Assembly: GCA_017554105.1 (NCBI GenBank) | Contig: JAFZIY010000008.1 | Coordinates: 1-64,000, forward strand | Reading direction: 5' to 3' | DNA from: Prevotella sp. | Lineage (GTDB): Bacteria > Bacteroidota > Bacteroidia > Bacteroidales > Bacteroidaceae | Length of the DNA: 64,000 nt | Shown here: piece by piece, positions 12,151-60,703 of the stretch | Position numbering within the stretch: position 1 is the first letter of the stretch | Layout: each line of letters begins with the position of its first letter | Translations under genes and position numbers: made by a program | Notes under the pieces: generated by a model | What the model was told of the DNA's origin: nothing | Seen by the model: only the letters and a program-made list of their open reading frames with translations | Database searches by the model: none

Positions 12151-12915
12151 ATATTTTTTTGTTTTTTCTCCTAAACAATACAACTTTTGCCACGTCAGTT
12201 GTGGCATGTTGCAACGTCAGGAGACACTACTGAGGGTGTCAGGTGTATTTAATGAGATGGTCAGATGTATATTCTTGCGCGTGCGTATTATATTAATGTG
12301 TATTTGATGTACAAACTTATGTTTCAACACCATAATATGCGTTTCGATTTTTGTTTCAATGCATGCAAAAATGCGTTTTGACCTTGCGAAATCGACAATC
12401 AGGTGCTTCATTTTACCATAAATGCCTCTTGAAATGAATTTGATATGTTTTTTTAGAATCACTCATTTTGCTTCAAATGCATGATAAAGCATCGGAAAAA
12501 GCAGTTTTCATTCGTTTCGGGGCCTATAAATGAAGAAAAATGATGTTTTTTTGTGCTTTATTTGAGATGTTAGAACGTTGATGTCGTTGGGCGGGTTGTT
12601 GTATACGCTTGATAATCAGACTATTAGAGAAAAATATATACACAAGCGTTTCAGTGTTTCAGCGTTTCAGTTGTTTTTTGAAGGGTGTCATTTTTCTTCT
12701 TTTTATATATTTATATATATAATATATTGTTTATTAATTAGTTATATAAAAAAGAAGCCGAATTTGAAAAATAACTATATCTCAAATACACCTGAAACGC
12801 TGAAACACTGAAACGCATAAATACTCACTCTTTCCCTACAAGGCCACCCTTTTATATCATTACCTTTAAAAAAGTTGAAATGTAAGACAGTGGTAGCAAT
12901 TTTTCCTTTATTTTC
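12151..12915. other. AT-rich gene-free region with a relic repeat element
   Basis: Between the divergent rlmD and ppdK promoters there is no convincing gene. Open frames at 12217-12462 (minus) and 12578-12811 (plus) have biased composition and no family features. The region contains the inverted-repeat element at 12646-12816. The bases just beyond its right arm (12818-12850) resemble the 3' end of the small gene that sits next to the related element at 51.4 kb, so this may be the residue of a lost copy of that operon. Confidence 0.6.
12646..12816. repeat. Inverted-repeat element A: 3 x 8-bp units on each arm, AT-rich core
   Basis: The left arm (12646-12670) is G plus three 8-bp units CGTTTCAG, TGTTTCAG, CGTTTCAG. 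The right arm (12792-12816) is its exact reverse complement, 25 of 25 bases. The 121-nt core is very AT-rich and contains TGTCATT and AATTAGTTATATAA, both also present in element B at 51270-51424. The element could fold as a long hairpin or cruciform, or act as an iteron-type protein-binding site. Confidence 0.85.
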
Positions 12916-48585: not shown

Positions 48586-48632
48586 TTTTTAGTTTGATTT
48601 TAGTTGACAAGTTGACGAGTAAACAAGTTAAT

Positions 48633-48732
48633 TGTAGGGGCGAACCCCCGTGTTAGCCCATATGTTTACCGCAATTCATGTTCACGTGTAATCTGCTGTT
48701 CTTTGCGGGCTAACACAGGGGTTCACCCTACA
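48633..48732. repeat. 100-bp palindromic repeat, copy 1
   Basis: The left arm TGTAGGGGCGAACCCCCGTG...TTAGCCC is mirrored by GGGCTAACACAGGGGTTC...CCCTACA. The core contains ACCGCAATTCATGTTCA. Same family as copies at 48861 and 60601. It is bounded by short direct runs such as ACAAGTTGACGAG and ACAAGTTAAT. Confidence 0.88.
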
Positions 48733-48816
48733 TTCTCATCACATAATATATCGCCAGGAGCCACAAGTGACCTACCTAGAAGCCACAAGTGATTTTGTCA
48801 GGAACGACTTCTATGG

Positions 48817-48850
48817 GAGTTACGAGTTAGGAGTGAGGAGTTAGGAGTTG
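48817..48850. repeat. Five 7-bp tandem repeats (GAGTTAG type)
   Basis: GAGTTAC, GAGTTAG, GAGTGAG, GAGTTAG, GAGTTG: the reverse complement of the CTAACTC heptamer array at 39945-40000. It sits between two copies of the 100-bp palindrome. Confidence 0.7.
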
Positions 48851-48860
48851 ACAAGTAACT

Positions 48861-48961
48861 TGTAGGGGCGAACCCCCGTGTTAGCCCGTATGTTTACCGC
48901 AATTCATGTTCATGTGCTATCTGCTATTCCTTGCGGGCTAACACTGGGGTTCGCCCCTACA
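48861..48961. repeat. 100-bp palindromic repeat, copy 2
   Basis: Same orientation as copy 1, about 228 bp downstream, with intact outer arms (TGTAGGGGCGAACCCCCGTG and GGGGTTCGCCCCTACA). The whole 48528-49000 gap holds only the terminator and repeats; no gene is seen. Confidence 0.88.
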
Positions 48962-49000
48962 ATTCTCACTTCTTCCTGCGCGAGGCGCACACGTCAAAAT

Positions 49001-49933
49001 TCAACCTTCAAAATTCCACCTTCGTTTCCACATCTCCCCGAAATCCTTGCACCCTTCCGGTAACTGATGATGCACGAGCCCCGGCAGCACCTTCTGCAGT
49101 TGCATGAAGAGGCGTTCGCCGGGGGCGTCGCGGTCAGGGAACATATGATATTCAATTGATAATTGAGAATTGATAATTGACAATTGTTCCTTGTCCTTTT
49201 TCGTCAACAGCGTGGCGGAGGGTATGGCGATGGCCTTGCGACCAGAGGACAGCATTGCCCAGCAGTCAGAGCAGCCCTCGGTAATCCACAGTTCCTCACC
49301 CGGTCGCAGCAGGTTCAATACGGGCAGGTTGTATATGCCACACTGCGAGCCCTGAGGAAAGCGAAATCGTGGTATGTCCCCCTTGGGGGATTTAGGGGGG
49401 TCGAGGTTACGGTTCTGTATGCCCACCAGCCGCCCCTCACGGTCGTAATACGGTATCTGCAGCCAAGGCACCTGCCTCTTGTCCTTCCACGATGTCAGCC
49501 TACACCAGCGCACCACCCGCGGGTCAATCCTCCGCTCATCATACAGAAACCGCCGTGCCTCAGGCGAAAGCCAAGGTCTCTCAAAGAAACGCTCATAACG
49601 AGCCCCCTCCCAACCTCCCCCCGTAGGGGAGGCTTCCCTCTCATCTCTCCAGTCTCCCCTCCCTACGGGGGAGGGGTCGGGGGAGAGGCTCAACCATTTT
49701 ATGGCCTCTTTGAAGTCCATATTCATTTGCTTCATCACCAAATCAATCGTTCCCCCATGCGCCCCACAAGCGAAGCAGCGGAACGTGTTCCTGCGCCTGC
49801 AGAACGACAGCGAGGCGTGATGGTCGTCGTGGAACGGGCACAGCGCCTTATGCCTCACCACCTGCATCCCAAGTCGCTCTGCGACCCCCTCAATGGGAAG
49901 GTCGCGGAGCTTCTGAAGTTCTAGTCTATCCAT
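49001..49933 (-). CDS. Primase-like protein: CHC2 zinc finger plus Toprim, with repeat insertions
   Basis: 310 residues. The CHC2 zinc finger uses Cys32, His35, Cys53 and Cys56 (CPFHDDH ... FRCFACGAHGG). The C-terminal Toprim-like part has WITEGCSDCWAM and FPDRDAPGERL (Glu and DxD metal site). It lacks the long RNA-polymerase and helicase-binding parts of DnaG, so it is an element- or phage-type small primase. Three dispersed repeats are read in frame: residues about 84-112 (49600-49691), the DPPKSPKGDIP segment (49376-49400), and QLSIINSQLSIE (49153-49187). The start overlaps the end of the DUF3987-like gene by 8 nt, which suggests coupled translation. Confidence 0.82.
   Translation of the reverse strand: MDRLELQKLRDLPIEGVAERLGMQVVRHKALCPFHDDHHASLSFCRRRNTFRCFACGAHGGTIDLVMKQMNMDFKEAIKWLSLSPDPSPVGRGDWRDEREASPTGGGWEGARYERFFERPWLSPEARRFLYDERRIDPRVVRWCRLTSWKDKRQVPWLQIPYYDREGRLVGIQNRNLDPPKSPKGDIPRFRFPQGSQCGIYNLPVLNLLRPGEELWITEGCSDCWAMLSSGRKAIAIPSATLLTKKDKEQLSIINSQLSIEYHMFPDRDAPGERLFMQLQKVLPGLVHHQLPEGCKDFGEMWKRRWNFEG
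49153..49187. repeat. Five 7-bp repeats (TAATTGA type) inside the primase gene
   Basis: CAATTGA, TAATTGA, GAATTGA, TAATTGA, CAATTGT, exact 7-bp period, translated as QLSIINSQLSIE just before the Toprim DxD strand. Confidence 0.8.
49376..49400. repeat. Short C/G-rich palindrome inside the primase gene
   Basis: CCCCCTTGGGGG (49378-49389) followed by ATTTAGGGGGG, read in frame as part of DPPKSPKGD. Confidence 0.65.
49600..49691. repeat. 92-bp C/G-rich palindromic insertion inside the primase gene
   Basis: The arms GAGCCCCCTCCCAACCTCCC... and ...GGGGTCGGGGGAGAGGCTC are imperfect reverse complements. It encodes about 30 Pro/Gly/Arg-rich residues between the zinc finger and the next conserved region. 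Confidence 0.8.
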
Positions 49934-51233
49934 TGTCTTTCAAGTATTTTTCCGTTTTGGTATAAAGACCAGTCTCAGCCGAGTAGGTGATAAAGCCACG
50001 GAACACCCATTGATACAACTGATTCTTTGTGCCCTCTGCACTCTTGCCAAGACTGGTGCGGAGTGCCACCAACTGAGCCTCGTTGAACTTGTCAGGAAGG
50101 TCTTCCAGCATGTTCTTCGGACCATCCTTGCTTGCCTCGTTAGTGCTAATGTCGCCCCCTTTCAGCAAGTCCGCAAATATCTGCATCTTGCTCCAGATGT
50201 CATGATAGACGAGCCATTCCACCAATTCACCCATCGGCTTCGTCCACGTCTGATTGTTAAGTGCCCACATCACGCATCCAGCTTTCCAGCCCGATACCAG
50301 CGCACGCTTTGAGACGTCCCACAGCACATCATCGTCGGCAAGATCAGCAAGCGAGGCCATGTCCAGGGCCAGATTATCAATCAGTTTGTTCAGCGAACGG
50401 ATGATGAAACGACCCTTGCAGATGTCGAGGCGCATCAGATATTCATCCAGTTTGCGGTAGAACTCATCGTTGTACTTACCCAGACGTGGAATCTTGCCGT
50501 CACGGCTTGAGCGCGGCTTGTAGGAAAACACCATACGTCCGAACGTACCGTTGAAGAATTCGTTCTTATAGAACTTACGTGCAGCAAACGGCGTACTTGA
50601 TATCGTCAGGTTGGCACGCAGAATAGGGTTGCCCGTGATACCATCAGCCGTTGCCCTTAATGCACCCGCGCGCTGGCGGTCGTAGATGTTACGGAGCATC
50701 TGAGTTACCTGCCTGTGACCTCCACACATACGGTCGGCCATCTCCACCTCGGGCATGTTGATATATTGTGTGCGGTCGCCCAAACTCTCAAGGGCCATCG
50801 CGTTCTGGAGGAAAGCAGGGTTAGTCACATCCGAGGGAGGAAACCAGAATGCCACGTCCGGGCGTATAGGCTTCTCCTTGTTCGCGCCCTTTGTCTTTAC
50901 TGTCTTCTGCCAACTCACGAGTTTCTGCATTTCAGTATCGTCGTGCTGATGGAAGTCGCGACAAATAGCCTCTACAAGATAGGACAATTGTCCCTTGTTA
51001 CCCCCACTTTCTGCCACCAAATGTGCCATCATACCGCATGGTTCCTTCCAAGTGAGGTCAGGATACTGAAATTCTGCTCCACAAATGTGTGCGCCAAGTA
51101 TAGGGAAAAACATCGGAACCAGGGGTTCATACATGTCTTTTGAGGCCTGTGAAAGCAGGATTTTCAGGCATTCTGTCCCTCTGCCAAGGTTCGGCATCTT
51201 AGGTGCTTTTTGTTTTGTAATATCGTATTTCAT
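49926..51233 (-). CDS. DUF3987-like protein with degenerate P-loop
   Basis: 435 residues, no signal peptide. It looks like the primase/helicase-associated DUF3987 group of Bacteroidales elements: MMAHLVAESGGNKGQLSYL (about 68-86) lies where Walker A would be but reads SGGNKGQL instead of GxxGxGKS, so ATP binding may be lost. Other conserved blocks are LTISSTPFAARKFY and a helical C-terminal half. It is cotranscribed with the primase-like gene (8-nt overlap) and preceded by inverted-repeat element B. Replication of a mobile element is the inferred setting. Confidence 0.65.
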   Translation of the reverse strand: MKYDITKQKAPKMPNLGRGTECLKILLSQASKDMYEPLVPMFFPILGAHICGAEFQYPDLTWKEPCGMMAHLVAESGGNKGQLSYLVEAICRDFHQHDDTEMQKLVSWQKTVKTKGANKEKPIRPDVAFWFPPSDVTNPAFLQNAMALESLGDRTQYINMPEVEMADRMCGGHRQVTQMLRNIYDRQRAGALRATADGITGNPILRANLTISSTPFAARKFYKNEFFNGTFGRMVFSYKPRSSRDGKIPRLGKYNDEFYRKLDEYLMRLDICKGRFIIRSLNKLIDNLALDMASLADLADDDVLWDVSKRALVSGWKAGCVMWALNNQTWTKPMGELVEWLVYHDIWSKMQIFADLLKGGDISTNEASKDGPKNMLEDLPDKFNEAQLVALRTSLGKSAEGTKNQLYQWVFRGFITYSAETGLYTKTEKYLKDNG

Positions 51234-51269
51234 TGATATACTGCTTTTTAGATAAAAATTTAATGTTCC

Positions 51270-51424
51270 AATCTTACAGTCTTACAGTCTTACAGACGTT
51301 TTTTTTGATATGTCATTACCCTCTATTATATATATAAATACTTATATATCAATTAGTTATATAATATTTAGAAGGGGGTTGTAATACATGTTTTTTGATT
51401 GTAAGACTGTAAGACTGTAAGATT
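51270..51424. repeat. Inverted-repeat element B: 3 x 8-bp units on each arm, AT-rich core
   Basis: The left arm (51270-51294) is AA followed by three TCTTACAG units (last one short by a base). The right arm (51400-51424) is its exact reverse complement, 25 of 25. The 105-nt core has TGTCATT, a run of TA steps and AATTAGTTATATAA, as in element A at 12646-12816, while the arm units differ. It fills the 206-nt gap between the small gene (stop 51440) and the DUF3987-like gene (start 51233). Confidence 0.88.
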
Positions 51425-51439
51425 TTTGACTCACTCACT

Positions 51440-51829
51440 TCACTCTACGAGGCCCTTCAGTGCCTGGCGAATCTCATTGCACACGGCGAGGGCGAAGCCA
51501 TCGACCGAGAAGCCGGCATCGGTCTTCAGTTTCTTGAAGTACAAACGTATGCTGCCGTCATTCCAGCGCGTCAGTGTGATATGCTCGCCATCGAAGAGTT
51601 TCGGGTTTCTCCTACAGGCAGTGGGCGTGACTGTTTCGATGAACGTGTAGTGGGCGTCGCGCGAGATGAACTCCTCCACGATGGCGTCCGAGTCGAGACA
51701 TAGCAGACCGCGGTACTCCTTGCCCGCTTGCATGTGCTCGTCGCTGCTGAGAACCGTTTTCAGGTCACAGCCAAGATCTGTGCTTTTGTGCCAACCTTCA
51801 TGGCTGGGCTTCTTTGAATAAATAGACAT
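51440..51829 (-). CDS. Small protein at the head of the primase operon
   Basis: 129 residues, function not recognised. It starts MSIYSKKPSHEGWHKSTDLG; the later part (RNPKLFDGEHITLTRWNDGSIRLYFKKL) looks like a small alpha/beta domain. Its place upstream of the DUF3987-like and primase-like genes suggests a replication accessory role, as for the small proteins found there in Bacteroidales elements. An extension to 51868 adds 13 residues without family features, so the ATG at 51829 is used. The 3' end is followed 15 nt later by element B. Confidence 0.6.
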   Translation of the reverse strand: MSIYSKKPSHEGWHKSTDLGCDLKTVLSSDEHMQAGKEYRGLLCLDSDAIVEEFISRDAHYTFIETVTPTACRRNPKLFDGEHITLTRWNDGSIRLYFKKLKTDAGFSVDGFALAVCNEIRQALKGLVE

Positions 51830-53249: not shown

Positions 53250-53561
53250 TCAGAAAACTGCTGCAATCTTCTTGATTTCCTTCAGCATTTCAAACAATGA
53301 GGAATCCTTGCGTGCCGTCTGCATGTTGTACTTTGTCTGCAGGTACATCAGCGAGTCGGCAGGCACGTCGAGGGCAGCCTCGAACATCAGCGCCGTCTTC
53401 GCCGTCAGCGGACGACGACCGTTTAGAATCTCGTTTACCACCGAATATGCCAGTCCCATGTTGTCAGCCAACTTCCTCTGGCTGATACCACGCTCCTCTA
53501 TCTCATCCTTCAGCACCTCGCCCGGATGAGTGGCATATGCTCCATAACCTAAGTTTCCCAT
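53250..53561 (-). CDS. higA: HigA-type antitoxin
   Basis: 103 residues. The opening THPGEVLKDEIEERGISQRKLADNMGL is the HigA/VapI-type helix-turn-helix, completed by VNEILNGRRPLTAKTALMFEAALDV. It neutralises HigB and is expected to repress the operon by binding the palindrome at 53918-53936. It follows higB by 5 nt, the usual toxin-first order. Confidence 0.93.
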   Translation of the reverse strand: MGNLGYGAYATHPGEVLKDEIEERGISQRKLADNMGLAYSVVNEILNGRRPLTAKTALMFEAALDVPADSLMYLQTKYNMQTARKDSSLFEMLKEIKKIAAVF

Positions 53562-53566
53562 ACGTT

Positions 53567-53875
53567 CTATTTATAATGATTCGACAATTCAATAATGTTG
53601 CAAATGGTGATTCCCTCTGTCTCGTTCGATTTGAACTCGACACGATACTGGTCGTTCACGCGTACCGACTCCAACCCCTTCTTGTTGCCCAACAACTTTT
53701 CATAGTGCAGGGCACGATAGCGGTACAAGTCCGTCACTTTGTCAACAGAGTCAAGGATGTTTATCACGCGCACGTACCGACGTACAACATCAGGCTGGTA
53801 GCGATGTTTTTTATCTCTTGCCACACCGTCGTAGAACAGTTCGCGCAGATAATCCTTTTCAAAATTAATCTCCAT
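53567..53875 (-). CDS. higB: HigB-type toxin (RelE superfamily mRNA interferase)
   Basis: 102 residues, RelE/ParE fold. The typical core is VDKVTDLYRYRALHYEKLLGNKKGLESVRVNDQYRVEFKSNE, with the conserved basic RVNDQYRVEF strand near residue 76 and an NIIELSNHYK end. It is expected to cleave mRNA at the ribosome when the antitoxin is degraded. First gene of the operon, with a palindrome over its promoter. Confidence 0.92.
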   Translation of the reverse strand: MEINFEKDYLRELFYDGVARDKKHRYQPDVVRRYVRVINILDSVDKVTDLYRYRALHYEKLLGNKKGLESVRVNDQYRVEFKSNETEGITICNIIELSNHYK

Positions 53876-53894
53876 ATTACTGCAACTTTGCCTG

Positions 53895-53925
53895 CAAAGA
53901 TATGAAACATTCTTGATATTCGCAA
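53895..53925 (-). promoter_or_regulatory. Promoter of higBA
   Basis: Minus-strand TTGC (53922-53925), 19-nt spacer, TATCTTTG (53895-53902), 20 nt before the ATG at 53875. Confidence 0.82.
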
Positions 53926-53936
53926 ATTTTGCGAAT
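53918..53936. promoter_or_regulatory. higBA operator palindrome
   Basis: ATTCGCAAA T TTTGCGAAT: a perfect 9-bp inverted repeat around one base, covering the -33 box. Its place and symmetry fit autorepression by HigA. Confidence 0.82.
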
Positions 53937-53971
53937 TATTTTTTTGTATAAATAAAAAAAACACCCATCCG

Positions 53972-54023
53972 CCTCTATTCGTTCACACACAATCCGTTGC
54001 CGAAAATCGCTCGTGCGAAAGTT
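53972..54023. repeat. 52-bp direct repeat, right copy (flanks higBA)
   Basis: CCTCTATTCGTTCACACACA ... TCGTGCGAAAGTT, 50 of 52 identical with 53143-53194. CACCCATCCGCC also precedes both FNGPM and higBA blocks (53053 and 53962). Confidence 0.88.
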
Positions 54024-54041
54024 TATATCTCATTCATCAAA

Positions 54042-54614
54042 TCAGCCAGGATACTCCCCCTCACCAAGCGATTTTTTGTATATCCTAATCATATTTCGAG
54101 CATTATTGGCATAAAACTCAAGTATCTCGATATCCTCTGAATGGTCGCCCTCCTCCTGTTTCAGTTGGGCTATCCTCGCCTCATAATCAGCCAATTTACC
54201 CTCATATTCTATCACTCTTTGCCGATGCAGTTCATCTTTCTCCTCGATTATTCTATTCATATTATCGAAGTATTCCTGACGCTCAGCCTCTGTCATACCA
54301 TCATACTCCCCGAGCATTATCATCTCTTCCAATTCCTCCTCTTCCCGTTCTTCCTCTTCTAGCCTCCGTTCTTCCTCTTCCCATTCCTCCTCTTCTAGCA
54401 TCCATTCCTCCTCTTCCCGTTCTTCCTCTTCTAGCCTCCGTTCTTCCTCTTCCCATTCCTCCTCTGCTAGTCTCCGTTCCTCTGCCCGTATTCTCCTTTC
54501 CCTCTCAGCCAACATGGCCTTATTTTGCATATACTCGTTTCGCAAATCCCTCTGGTAAGAGCGAATTGCTTTCTTGGTTATGAGTAACCCCACTAAACTT
54601 TCCCAAAAACCCAT
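54042..54614 (-). CDS. Glu-rich coiled-coil protein with internal 24-residue repeats
   Basis: 190 residues, function unknown. The N-terminus (MGFWESLVGLLITKKAIRSYQRDL) may contact a membrane; then comes a long charged helix. Residues about 48-100 consist of two nearly perfect 24-residue repeats (E-rich, with WMLEEEEWEEEERRLEEEE as the core), encoded by two 72-bp DNA repeats. A second helical part with IIEEKDELHRQRVIEYEGKLADYEARI follows. AGGAGGT at 54619-54625 fixes the ATG at 54614 over a GTG at 54620. Confidence 0.65.
   Translation of the reverse strand: MGFWESLVGLLITKKAIRSYQRDLRNEYMQNKAMLAERERRIRAEERRLAEEEWEEEERRLEEEEREEEEWMLEEEEWEEEERRLEEEEREEEELEEMIMLGEYDGMTEAERQEYFDNMNRIIEEKDELHRQRVIEYEGKLADYEARIAQLKQEEGDHSEDIEILEFYANNARNMIRIYKKSLGEGEYPG
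54332..54475. repeat. Two 72-bp coding tandem repeats
   Basis: 54332-54403 and 54404-54475 differ at only a few positions. Each is itself a doubled 36-bp unit. Copy number could change by slippage without breaking the frame. Confidence 0.85.
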
Positions 54615-54618
54615 AGGC

Positions 54619-54625
54619 ACCTCCT
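54619..54625 (-). promoter_or_regulatory. Strong Shine-Dalgarno (AGGAGGT)
   Basis: Five nt spacing to the ATG at 54614; decides the start of the coiled-coil protein. Confidence 0.7.
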
Positions 54626-54775
54626 TGTTATTTCTTCAGATTATGTTTCTATACCATATAATAATATATCAAGCGAGCGATATAAAACGCAAGCATTTTA
54701 ATATAGCCACGCGTCACCTTGTTGATTGCGACCTCTGTCAAGTAGCCTTGTGCACATCAATAGTTTAATTAGTTA

Positions 54776-55393
54776 TCATTGAAGCTCCAAGAAAGTAATA
54801 ATCTCTGATGGGAGTTTCTTGGCTGCCATTTTACTATTTGAGTCAAGGCTATTAAAGTAATTAATCAATTTTCTTTTGTCAGATATGGGAATATTATTAA
54901 TTCCATTACTATTGATGTAATTGAGAAGCATTCTTAATCCGAAAGACCCAACGAATGAAGAAAATGCTTTTTTAGATGGTAAAATCTTAATAGAAATACC
55001 ATTTGTAAGATTTACTGTCTTTATCCTTTGATTGTTATAACATACAATGTTTAGAGGTATTGTATTCTTTATGCCCATAAGATATTGAGCATATTCACTT
55101 ATCGGACAAATCTCATAACCTTCTTTATGGGCAATTGCTTTTAGTATGGTAATGACAGGTGGGTAAATTGGCTTGTTGCCATCATATTTGGGATAACAAT
55201 AGACTCCACGACTGACCCTAATTAAAATACCCCTTTTGCAAAGATGTACCAAGATTGACCTGATATGAGTATAGGATAATCTTTCTATATTCATGAAATC
55301 TTTAATTGTTAGGATGGTCCCCCTCTTATTAGTCTTTAAATACTCCATGACTCTATATAATACAGAGTCAACAATATCATTATTTGTATTCAT
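54776..55393 (-). CDS. DUF6088 / AbiEi-like winged-helix protein
   Basis: 205 residues. The N-terminal winged helix (about 1-68: VLYRVMEYLKTNKRGTILTIKDF ... RSILVHLCKRGILIRVSRGVYCYP) is followed by the conserved Bacteroidales DUF6088 body (ILKAIAHKEGYEICPISEYAQYLMGI). The family is related to AbiEi antitoxins/regulators, but no AbiEii toxin is adjacent. It is the last gene of the AT-rich restriction-type operon, 19 nt after the Z1 gene, so a control role in that system is likely but inferred. Confidence 0.75.
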   Translation of the reverse strand: MNTNNDIVDSVLYRVMEYLKTNKRGTILTIKDFMNIERLSYTHIRSILVHLCKRGILIRVSRGVYCYPKYDGNKPIYPPVITILKAIAHKEGYEICPISEYAQYLMGIKNTIPLNIVCYNNQRIKTVNLTNGISIKILPSKKAFSSFVGSFGLRMLLNYINSNGINNIPISDKRKLINYFNSLDSNSKMAAKKLPSEIITFLELQ

Positions 55394-55412
55394 AATATAT
55401 ATTACTAGCTAA

Positions 55413-57307
55413 TTAATCAACATTATAAAAACAACAATCATCCGGGAATTTTATATTTGGGATCCATAGTGGATGTCCATCCCAACCCTTATCTTTGCTA
55501 CCTATTACACGATACATAGTTAAAACGACTTCCTTTTTGAATGAATCACCTAACACTCTATCATTTGGAGATAACAATGTACCTGTACCTTTGGCAACAT
55601 CACGATCTATCCTTACAATTAACTTGCATTTTAATTGTGGCTTTTTCATCTTCAATCCTTGTATGCAAGCAATATACTTATTAGTATTGAAATCCTCTAA
55701 TGTTTCACTTTTTACAAGATTAAGAAGCCTAATAATAAGCTCTGGTTCAACATCTATATTTTTTTCAGATGCATATTGTTCAATTATTTCATTAATTGTT
55801 TCAACATTTATACTTAGTGGTGTTTCGGCGAATAAATTTACGCCACCGTGTATTAAGTTTAGGTATTTGTTGTCCACTACATTCTTTCGAGTAGGTCTTA
55901 TATTGCTTGGGAAAATAAGCTGAATGTTTTCCAAATTCTCTTCCACTTGCTTAATTAACATTTCATTTGAAGCATTAAGGTCAGAAAACAATTTGTACAA
56001 ACCTTGGGGGATAAACATACGCACAATTTGCTTTTCTCTATCATATCCAAATATGCGAGAATGTTGCCAAAATGTGTCTGCTTGTGGTGTCTTTGATGTC
56101 CTACAATAATACACCGTTTGCAGATTAGGAAATGTAATTCCTCTGCCTAAAGTGTTACCACCAACTACGATATTAAACCCTTTTGACAAATCTAAAGCAT
56201 CGGGATTATTAGGGTCTCTACAAACAAAACTTTTAGAATTTAGAGGAATGACCATAACCTCTTTATTATCAAGAATTTCAATTACAGATTCTTTAATGTC
56301 TTCATAATCCTCTAAATCTGGTTTTGTTTGTTGTAAATCTTTCCATTCTTCACAAAGTTTTTTATCAAAGATTTTTTCTTCAGTTGACCTTTGCAATAAA
56401 TCGAGATGATCTTGAACTGTCGCAACAAATAAATTATGTACACTAATACTAATGCTTGGATGTATCATAAAGTTGCAATTGTTCTGACCATTGATTTTCT
56501 TATGGGCGCAGTTTATCAAAAAGGAAAAAATACTTTTACTAAGCCCAATTGGGCAAATCTTATCACCACCTTGTTTTATAGAGTCAAGTTCATAATCGGG
56601 GGTGAAAATTGTGTTTAGTGACTTTGTTCTAGGATAAAAATAATTACCTCCCAAATAATTAGCTCCTGGCTTAAAGTAATATACAAATTGAGGTCGCCAT
56701 CCTGACAATGATGTCTGTAGAATAATGGCTTGAGGAGTTGCGGTTACTTCAACATATATTGTACTAGCAGCAGACGATTTAATTTCTGACAATCTCTTAT
56801 TAATTGTACTAACCCTGTATCTATTAATTAAAGTATTAAGGCTTGCTGCATCGGCTTCATCATCAAATATAACAAGGAATAGTCCCTTGCAGACATTTGT
56901 ACTTAGTAAATGGTTTTTCCACCTTGACAATACACGAGAATTCTTTTTAAAACTACTACAGTAGGTTTTATAAGGGATGCTGGTGTTAATAAAGAATCCT
57001 CTTTCTCATTTAACACATTAAAACCAGATAACGATTCCTTAACCCTATTATATGTTTGCCTATGGAGATCAACATTGTCAGTAGTTAGTAGCAAGAAAAC
57101 CTTGTAACCATCATCAGCCATTGCAGAAATTATGCCTAGCATTTGGGCGGTTTTACCACTTTGAACATTTCCGAGCAACAAAGCATTAAGTTGCTTGGTA
57201 ATATTAAAGTTTTCATTTATTCTTTGAATAAACGACGCAGATGTTACAGTTATAGTTTGCACTAATTCTGCATTATCAATTTTAGATATATAATCGTTAA
57301 GAAACAT
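55413..57307 (-). pseudogene. Z1-domain P-loop ATPase, split by a frameshift
   Basis: Two overlapping frames make one gene. 57307-56903 encodes the N-terminal part with Walker A GNVQSGKTAQML (about 46-57) and ends prematurely. The rest (Walker B-like VIFDDEADAASLN, then the Z1 region with GGNTLGRGITFPNLQTVYYCR) is read from a different frame down to 55413. The switch lies at a 5-A run on the coding strand (56944-56948): adding one A restores LKKNSRVLSRWKNHL. A full protein would have about 630 residues. Z1 proteins occur with methyltransferases in restriction-like systems. True inactivation, slippage or a sequencing error are all possible. Confidence 0.88.
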
Positions 57308-60600: not shown

Positions 60601-60703
60601 TGTAGGGGCGAACCCCAGTGTTAGCCCGCAAGGAATATCAGATAACACGTGAACATGAATTGCGGTAACCATATACGGGCTAACACGGGGGTTCGCCCCT
60701 ACA
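60601..60703. repeat. 100-bp palindromic repeat, copy 3 (inverted)
   Basis: Same family as 48633 and 48861 but in the opposite orientation: TGAACATGAATTGCGGTAAC-like core on the plus strand. The rest of the 60443-60813 gap holds the repeats above and a weak stem near the MscS stop; no gene. Confidence 0.88.

What the first reader, a model, noticed from the sequence alone, without database searches (positions are those of the whole stretch)
51270..51424. Element B is homologous to A in core and flanks, but both arms carry a different 8-bp unit
B has the same design (25-bp perfect inverted arms, three 8-mers, AT-rich core with TGTCATT and AATTAGTTATATAA), and the outer flanks also align (TTAGATAAAAAT-like left side; CTCACTC...CTAC-AGGCC right side). 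Yet the unit is TCTTACAG rather than CGTTTCAG. All six units must have changed together. That is concerted evolution, as expected of a sequence-specific recognition system, for example an initiator or recombinase and its cognate repeats, or an RNA stem under compensatory change. Its position inside the DUF3987-like/primase-like operon points to element replication.
Basis: partly seen in the sequence, partly recalled or inferred. Interest (0 to 1): 0.8.

Follow-up and report, generated by a model that had tools for sequence, protein, structure and literature searches.

The report
Repeat array read by neighbouring helicase-like protein
A stretch of DNA with three short repeats on each side of an AT-rich centre changes its repeats in step with a few amino acids of the protein encoded next to it, which suggests that this poorly known protein recognises the stretch, most likely as a starting point for copying DNA.

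Summary
Element B (51270-51424) has perfect 25-bp inverted arms of three TCTTACAG units around a 105-bp core. It lies 36 bp before the start codon of a 435-aa DUF3987-like protein (P435), followed by a primase. The arrangement recurs in 78 of 85 upstream regions of related cassettes (near-duplicates included). The unit differs between cassettes but mostly agrees within one. Unit bases co-vary with residues of one predicted recognition helix at P435's C-terminus: residue 408 with base 4, residue 407 with base 1. Phylogenetically independent pairs support both; 12 control columns, tested against base 4, do not. In held-out loci base 4 was predicted in 47 of 52 (always guessing T: 33). Base 1 was right in 25 of 36, no better than always guessing G (26), because N407 failed. 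SMALL and the primase show no such cluster. P435 therefore very probably reads the arrays as DNA; an RNA stem is disfavoured. Best explanation: an iteron-type replication origin and its initiator, organised like phage P4 alpha. Binding, replication and mobility were not shown. An autoregulatory operator remains the main rival.

The parts
51270..51294 (.). P435-proximal repeat array of element B (three CTTACA units, 8-bp spacing)
   Evidence: 8 of 8 CTTACAN{0,4}CTTACA matches in the genome lie in B or its copy on contig C15
51295..51399 (.). AT-rich core between the arrays
   Evidence: mean AT 0.74 over 62 elements, against 0.46 in the mostly coding upstream flank, but 0.71 in the leader before the P435 start
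51400..51424 (.). P435-distal repeat array of element B, inverted
49926..51233 (-). P435: DUF3987-like ATPase with predicted C-terminal winged helix; proposed initiator that reads the arrays
   Evidence: no direct Pfam match
50001..50027 (-). codons 403-411 of P435: predicted recognition helix; residues 404, 407, 408 and 411 co-vary with the units
49001..49933 (-). primase with CHC2 zinc finger, directly after P435
51440..51829 (-). SMALL: 129-aa protein of unknown function, upstream gene of the cassette
   Evidence: no family match
12646..12816 (.). element A: homologous arrays with GTTTCA units, in a decayed copy without P435, between a tRNA (uracil-5-)-methyltransferase-like gene and a pyruvate phosphate dikinase gene
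53250..56930 (-). [not shown]

Best explanation
Element B is most likely an iteron-type replication origin of a chromosomally integrated replication module, and P435 is its initiator. Supported here by co-variation: the C-terminal winged helix of P435 reads each repeat unit in double-stranded DNA. Residue 408 (with 411) goes with base 4, residue 407 with base 1; residue 404 may go with base 3. Inferred: P435 molecules assemble on the three sites of each inverted array, one assembly on either side of the AT-rich core. Its ATPase then opens the core and the adjacent primase starts synthesis. The units of one element change together because one helix must read all six, so a change of helix selects the matching change in every unit. 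Also inferred: modules diversify their unit so that they do not act on each other's origins or are not attacked through them.
For: Mutual information between P435 columns and unit bases peaks at Y407 for base 1 (z 19; next N404 10.0, then D126 outside the helix 8.3) and at Q408 for base 4 (z 27; then G413 13.6, F411 12.7, P380 10.2, N404 8.9). For the whole unit the order is Q408, Y407, N404, F411. SMALL and primase columns reach at most 6.1 without clustering. In 74 loci residue 407 gives R/K to G 46 of 49, Y to C 13 of 14, N/A to A 8 of 8; residue 408 gives Q/H to A 16 of 16, K to C 37 of 40, V/N to T 15 of 18. On a 132-row tree built without the C-terminus, independent pairs go the same way in 15.1 of 21 (base 1 G, 407 R/K) and 8.6 of 9 (base 4 C, 408 K), the opposite way in 0.0 on average; 12 control columns tested against base 4 C give nothing. 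Held-out base 4: 47 of 52, where always guessing T gives 33. The helix codons lie about 1.2 kb from the array, and 30-residue bins between them average lower (0.6-2.8 against 5.9 for base 4), though single outside columns reach z 10. Inverted arrays flank an AT-rich core next to a DUF3987-type ATPase and a primase. Tandem CTTACA units occur only in cassette copies (8 of 8); tandem TTTCAG in 7 of 9. TAnnTTTG (Bacteroidetes promoter box, recalled) occurs on the sense strand in 0 of 77 elements, against a mononucleotide-shuffle mean of 7.7.
Against: No replication, melting, binding or excised form was shown. Held-out base 1 was right in 25 of 36, while always guessing G gives 26: R to G held (17 of 18) but N to A failed (4 of 12). 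Held-out rows are also related to each other (up to 97% identity), and 8 of 67 gave no unit. The leader before the start codon is nearly as AT-rich as the core (0.71 against 0.74), and TAnnTTTG is depleted on the other strand too (5 of 77 against 20), so neither point is specific. P435 is absent from the plasmid and phage collections and found once in IMG/VR. I did not search for integrases. The P-loop of P435 is unusual and helicase activity is assumed. No structure prediction was possible. Of 9 longer homologues only 3 had a clear array by my test, and two of those break the simple rule for base 4.
Confidence: 0.62

Rival explanations
1. The arrays are an autoregulatory operator: P435 binds them to control its own operon, and replication starts elsewhere or not at all.
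For: The element sits directly upstream of the P435 start codon, usually within about 50 bp. The co-variation shows recognition, not its purpose. The leader is as AT-rich as the core. In three longer homologues the arrays also lie upstream, 1.7-3 kb away.
Against: Two inverted triple arrays around a core mostly 96-118 bp long are more than an operator needs (inference). No TAnnTTTG box on the sense strand, though other promoters are not excluded. P435 is an ATPase-type protein with a primase partner.
Confidence: 0.23
2. The arrays are recombination or transposition ends, and the decayed copies are MITE-like derivatives moved by P435 or an unknown enzyme.
For: Seven copies in one genome with different neighbouring reading frames (compared by eye). 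Three decayed copies share the same end at the P-loop codons of P435.
Against: Homology continues outside both arms into SMALL and P435, so the arms are not the ends. No family search linked P435 to a recombinase. Target duplications were not looked for.
Confidence: 0.08
3. The element acts as an RNA hairpin kept by compensatory change.
For: Arms are complementary in most copies.
Against: Mismatches between arms show no wobble bias: G.T 17, A.C 23, other 33 of 1313 pairs in 61 arm pairs (small counts). The bases follow residues of a DNA-binding-like helix, with R to G and Q to A as in classical duplex contacts (recalled). No Rfam family reached its gathering score in 51000-51700.
Confidence: 0.03

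Closest known systems
Phage P4 alpha protein with its ori (origin recognition, helicase and primase)
   Same: An initiator with an origin-binding domain reads short repeats; helicase and primase functions are linked (P4 details largely recalled; the title of Ziegelin 1993 was seen in a reference list of PMC8628076).
   Different: Primase is a separate CHC2 protein; the ATPase is of the DUF3987 kind; found in Prevotellaceae and other Bacteroidales contigs; unit sequence differs from cassette to cassette.
PLE satellite RepA and its iterons in Vibrio cholerae, with the ICP1 nuclease Odn
   Same: Initiator and iterons of integrated elements diversify; a phage nuclease that imitates the initiator may select for change (passages of PMC8263062).
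   Different: [quoted passage not shown] no relation of P435 to that RepA was tested; no nuclease was looked for here.
BT4734-like/DUF3987 proteins of Bacteroidales
   Same: P435 aligns over nearly its whole length with the C-terminal part of these proteins of about 750-820 aa; 3 of 9 examined loci have similar arrays.
   Different: P435 lacks their N-terminal part; the other six loci showed no clear array by my test.
PINSR, the 188-bp Prevotella intermedia group repeat
   Same: A Prevotella intergenic repeat family of similar length (passages of PMC4755523).
   Different: PINSR lacks terminal inverted repeats and has 177-184 copies per genome; no sequence comparison was made here.

Membership tests
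iteron-type origin with cognate initiator | several copies of a short repeat that the initiator recognises | tested here: met
   repeats in 78 of 85 upstream regions; co-variation with the P435 helix (base 4 also held-out); binding itself not tested
iteron-type origin with cognate initiator | adjacent AT-rich region for melting | tested here: inconclusive
   core AT 0.74 against 0.46 in the mostly coding flank, but 0.71 in the leader, 62 elements; melting not tested
iteron-type origin with cognate initiator | supports replication of linked DNA | not testable with these tools
   needs an experiment or read depth
P4 alpha type initiator | ATPase/helicase domain joined to an origin-binding winged helix | tested here: inconclusive
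   DUF3987 match in one homologue (L196, 34.2 bits, cut-off 27); winged helix inferred from sequence; no structure
P4 alpha type initiator | sequence kinship to P4 alpha | tested here: inconclusive
   no PDB relative of the P435 profile (one unrelated hit at E 0.023) and no Pfam match; P4 alpha itself was not compared
MITE | terminal inverted repeats are the ends of the element, with target duplication | tested here: not met
   homology extends beyond both arms; target duplications not tested
structured RNA | wobble pairs favoured among arm mismatches on the transcribed strand | tested here: not met
   G.T 17 against A.C 23 in 61 arm pairs; counts are small
phage or plasmid replication module | present in phage or plasmid records | tested here: not met
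   no match in 50,697 phage and 72,556 plasmid records; one IMG/VR contig

The most novel reading that the evidence does not exclude
DUF3987-type proteins of Bacteroidales are origin initiators whose single recognition helix follows a largely residue-to-base code. Many integrated replication modules, some beside defence genes, have diversified their origins combinatorially under pressure to avoid cross-initiation or origin-directed attack, so that origin specificity can in good part be read from protein sequence.
Probability: 0.38. Interest if true: 0.85.

Novelty: new variant of a known kind. Interest (0 to 1): 0.72.

Why it matters
It proposes a function (sequence-specific origin recognition) for a protein family labelled 'unknown function' and names the residues and bases involved. 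Dozens of natural protein-array pairs give a ready-made set for studying how a DNA-binding protein and its sites change together. If the modules are mobile, the code would also help to tell which of them can act on each other.

Tried and rejected
RNA hairpin: no wobble bias, and only three microRNA-family matches below the gathering scores in Rfam. SMALL or primase as reader: no clustered co-variation. Unit changes on the primase tree equal shuffles (40 against mean 41.5, 93 of 500 as low; some primase rows are fragments), and on the SMALL tree they are slightly fewer (24 against 26.3, 14 of 500). Genome-wide regulator: tandem CTTACA units occur only in B and C15 (8 of 8); of tandem TTTCAG, 7 of 9 lie in A or C16 and 2 elsewhere; single units were not searched. 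Circular small contigs: none of 15 whole contigs had terminal overlaps. An IMG/VR contig with three CTTACAG units (L272) has them in one orientation only and no P435 in the 11.5 kb held; judged unrelated. Arms as transposon ends: homology passes beyond them.

Rows dropped: of 85 upstream regions, 75 were labelled by me from the output, before residues were looked at. Seven were left unlabelled as weak, ambiguous or empty (L095, L106, L108, L111, L116, L136, L146). Three were set aside (L049, L052, L063); L052 and L063 repeat L078 and L094, L049 was used later as held-out. L083 had no P435 in my gene table, so 74 entered. Held-out: 111 loci gave 108 full P435 and 67 after identity filters; 59 had a unit. 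One search used 132 rows, the 74 plus 58 of those 59 (L223 had no readable helix); its base-1 A test added residue S after the held-out table had been seen.

Odds for the origin were lowered from 0.66 to 0.62 and for the operator raised from 0.20 to 0.23; the novel case from 0.40 to 0.38.

Full report
What is there. Element B is as described: 25-bp perfect inverted arms at 51270-51294 and 51400-51424, each with three CTTACA units 8 bp apart, around a 105-bp core. On the minus strand it lies between SMALL (51440-51829), whose stop codon is 15 bp from one arm, and the 435-aa gene P435 (start codon at 51233, 36 bp from the other arm). P435 overlaps the start of a primase gene (49001-49933; CHC2 zinc finger). 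Element A (12646-12816) is homologous in its core but lies between housekeeping genes.

Copies in this genome. Searches of the whole genome found seven copies. B and C16 sit in intact cassettes (SMALL, element, P435, primase). C22 keeps about 88 codons of P435. C15, C21a, C21b and A keep at most decayed fragments of the flanking genes (for A I judged the flank by eye). C15, C21a and C21b share one end, at the P-loop codons of P435 (end of C15). So A and B are members of a dispersed family, and A is a decayed one.

The arrays. Of 85 upstream regions, 75 gave a unit I could assign and 3 more with arrays were set aside; 7 were weak, ambiguous or empty. The step is usually a hexamer NNNNCA; bases 1, 3 and 4 vary between elements, base 2 is nearly always T, and two elements end in CG (17 units among 75). 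Units mostly agree within an element on both sides, and spacings are mirrored. The core is AT-rich (0.74 against 0.46 in the mostly coding upstream flank), but the leader is nearly as rich (0.71; 62 elements). CTAAAAAG recurs in the leader of 51 of 77 elements, TATAACTA (38 of 77) and TAGTTATA (39 of 77) in the core.

Which protein reads them. Units follow the P435 tree (35 changes, shuffles 42 or more, 0 of 500 as low), not the primase tree (40 against 41.5), and weakly the SMALL tree (24 against 26.3, 14 of 500). Column by column, the strongest signals sit in one stretch of P435, GT(403)(404)QL(407)(408)W(410)(411)R: residue 407 with base 1 (z 19), residue 408 with base 4 (z 27), with 404 and 411 adding. 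Outside columns reach 8.3 for base 1 (D126) and 10.2 for base 4 (P380); G413, next to the helix, reaches 13.6. SMALL (48 rows) and primase (69 rows) reach at most 6.1. The stretch reads as a recognition helix with a wing after it (my reading of the sequence). W409 is invariant and R412 nearly so, while 403, 404, 407, 408, 410 and 411 vary (182 rows). The training table is close to a code: R/K to G 46 of 49, Y to C 13 of 14, N/A to A 8 of 8; Q/H to A 16 of 16, K to C 37 of 40, V/N to T 15 of 18. R to G, Q to A and N to A are classical duplex-DNA contacts (recalled).

Controls. On a tree from residues 1-375 only, with 74 rows, independent pairs go the same way in 6.6 of 7 (base 4 C, 408 K), 6.0 of 7 (base 4 T), 6.4 of 8 (base 4 A), 7.0 of 8 (base 1 G, 407 R/K), 5.3 of 8 (base 1 A, p 0.06) and 3.4 of 4 (base 1 C, too few). 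With 132 rows, training and held-out together: 8.6 of 9, 9.8 of 15, 11.6 of 17, 15.1 of 21, 9.3 of 17 and 8.5 of 10 in the same order, with 0.0 opposite on average. For base 3 the tests were short of significance (1.9 of 2 for C with H404; 5.0 of 8, p 0.06, for G with D/A404). Twelve columns drawn at random from 95 gave no signal against base 4 C; no control was run for base 1.

Held-out test. Of 67 P435 at most 95% identical to any training row, 59 had a callable unit. Base 4 was right in 47 of 52 with a coded residue (V to T 33 of 38, Q to A 9 of 9, K to C 5 of 5); always guessing T would give 33. Base 1 was right in 25 of 36 (R to G 17 of 18, Y to C 2 of 3, A to A 2 of 2, N to A 4 of 12, H to T 0 of 1); always guessing G would give 26. 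Eight of the 11 base-1 misses share H404 and N407 with units GTCTCA or GTCACA. So base 4 is confirmed outside the training set, and the base-1 code is incomplete: context such as residue 404 must matter. The rows are related to each other, so these counts are not independent trials.

Wider kinship. BT4734-type proteins of about 750-820 aa align with P435 over nearly its length. Of six scanned, five pass the BT4734-like_N cut-off and one the DUF3987 cut-off. Of nine such loci, three have a comparable double array. In L195 residues A407 and Q408 fit unit ATGACA. In L197 and L198 R407 fits base 1 of GTGACA, but K408 breaks the simple rule for base 4; it matches only the small K408 plus S411 group of the training table (L092, L122), a comparison made afterwards and by eye.

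How it probably works. Recognition of the arrays by the P435 helix is strongly supported, by co-variation only. That this serves replication is inferred from the ATPase and primase genes, the inverted arrays around an AT-rich core, the scarcity of other tandem targets in the genome and the lack of a promoter box on the sense strand (the box is depleted on the other strand too). P4 alpha and the PLE RepA are the nearest models. The eLife paper on Odn (PMC8263062), seen in passages only, shows a satellite's iterons under attack, which offers one reason for diversification. An operator remains the main rival.

Literature. Twelve papers hold DUF4248 or DUF3987, one of them both. Passages of PMC6231650 and PMC10434189, PMC8628076 and PMC4755523 were seen. 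Searches for HU-HIG, P4 origin terms, Prevotella with iteron terms, BT4734/VirE terms and initiator co-evolution terms listed nothing that, by title, abstract start or the passages seen, describes these arrays or this code. The library holds open-licence papers only.

Noticed in passing
48630-48964 and 60601-60703: GTAGGGGCGAACCCC palindromic repeats lie on both sides of the island that holds the cassette; 19 exact matches genome-wide, 16 of them in opposite-strand pairs 43-86 bp apart. Their nature is unknown.
   Followed up: partly
L033, L034, L035 (contigs C15, C21): Three decayed copies share the same truncation at the P-loop codons of P435, as if one truncated copy had spread.
   Followed up: partly
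genomes: Twelve partial P435 matches in the listing keep the origin-near N-terminal part and end at residues 88-122 (one at a contig edge). C-terminal-only pieces appeared only at contig edges, beside an N-terminal piece, or as longer homologues. The listing was cut, so this is not a full count.
   Followed up: no
51234-51269: The leader between array and P435 start carries a CTAAAAAG motif that recurs in 51 of 77 leaders; no function known.
   Followed up: no
[not shown]
   Followed up: partly
L272:2890-2911: An IMG/VR contig carries three CTTACAG units in one orientation before a 367-aa gene, without P435 in the stretch held.
   Followed up: partly
L194 (own genome, contig C12): A 752-aa BT4734-like homologue of P435 is present in the same genome, without a clear array by my test.
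   Followed up: partly
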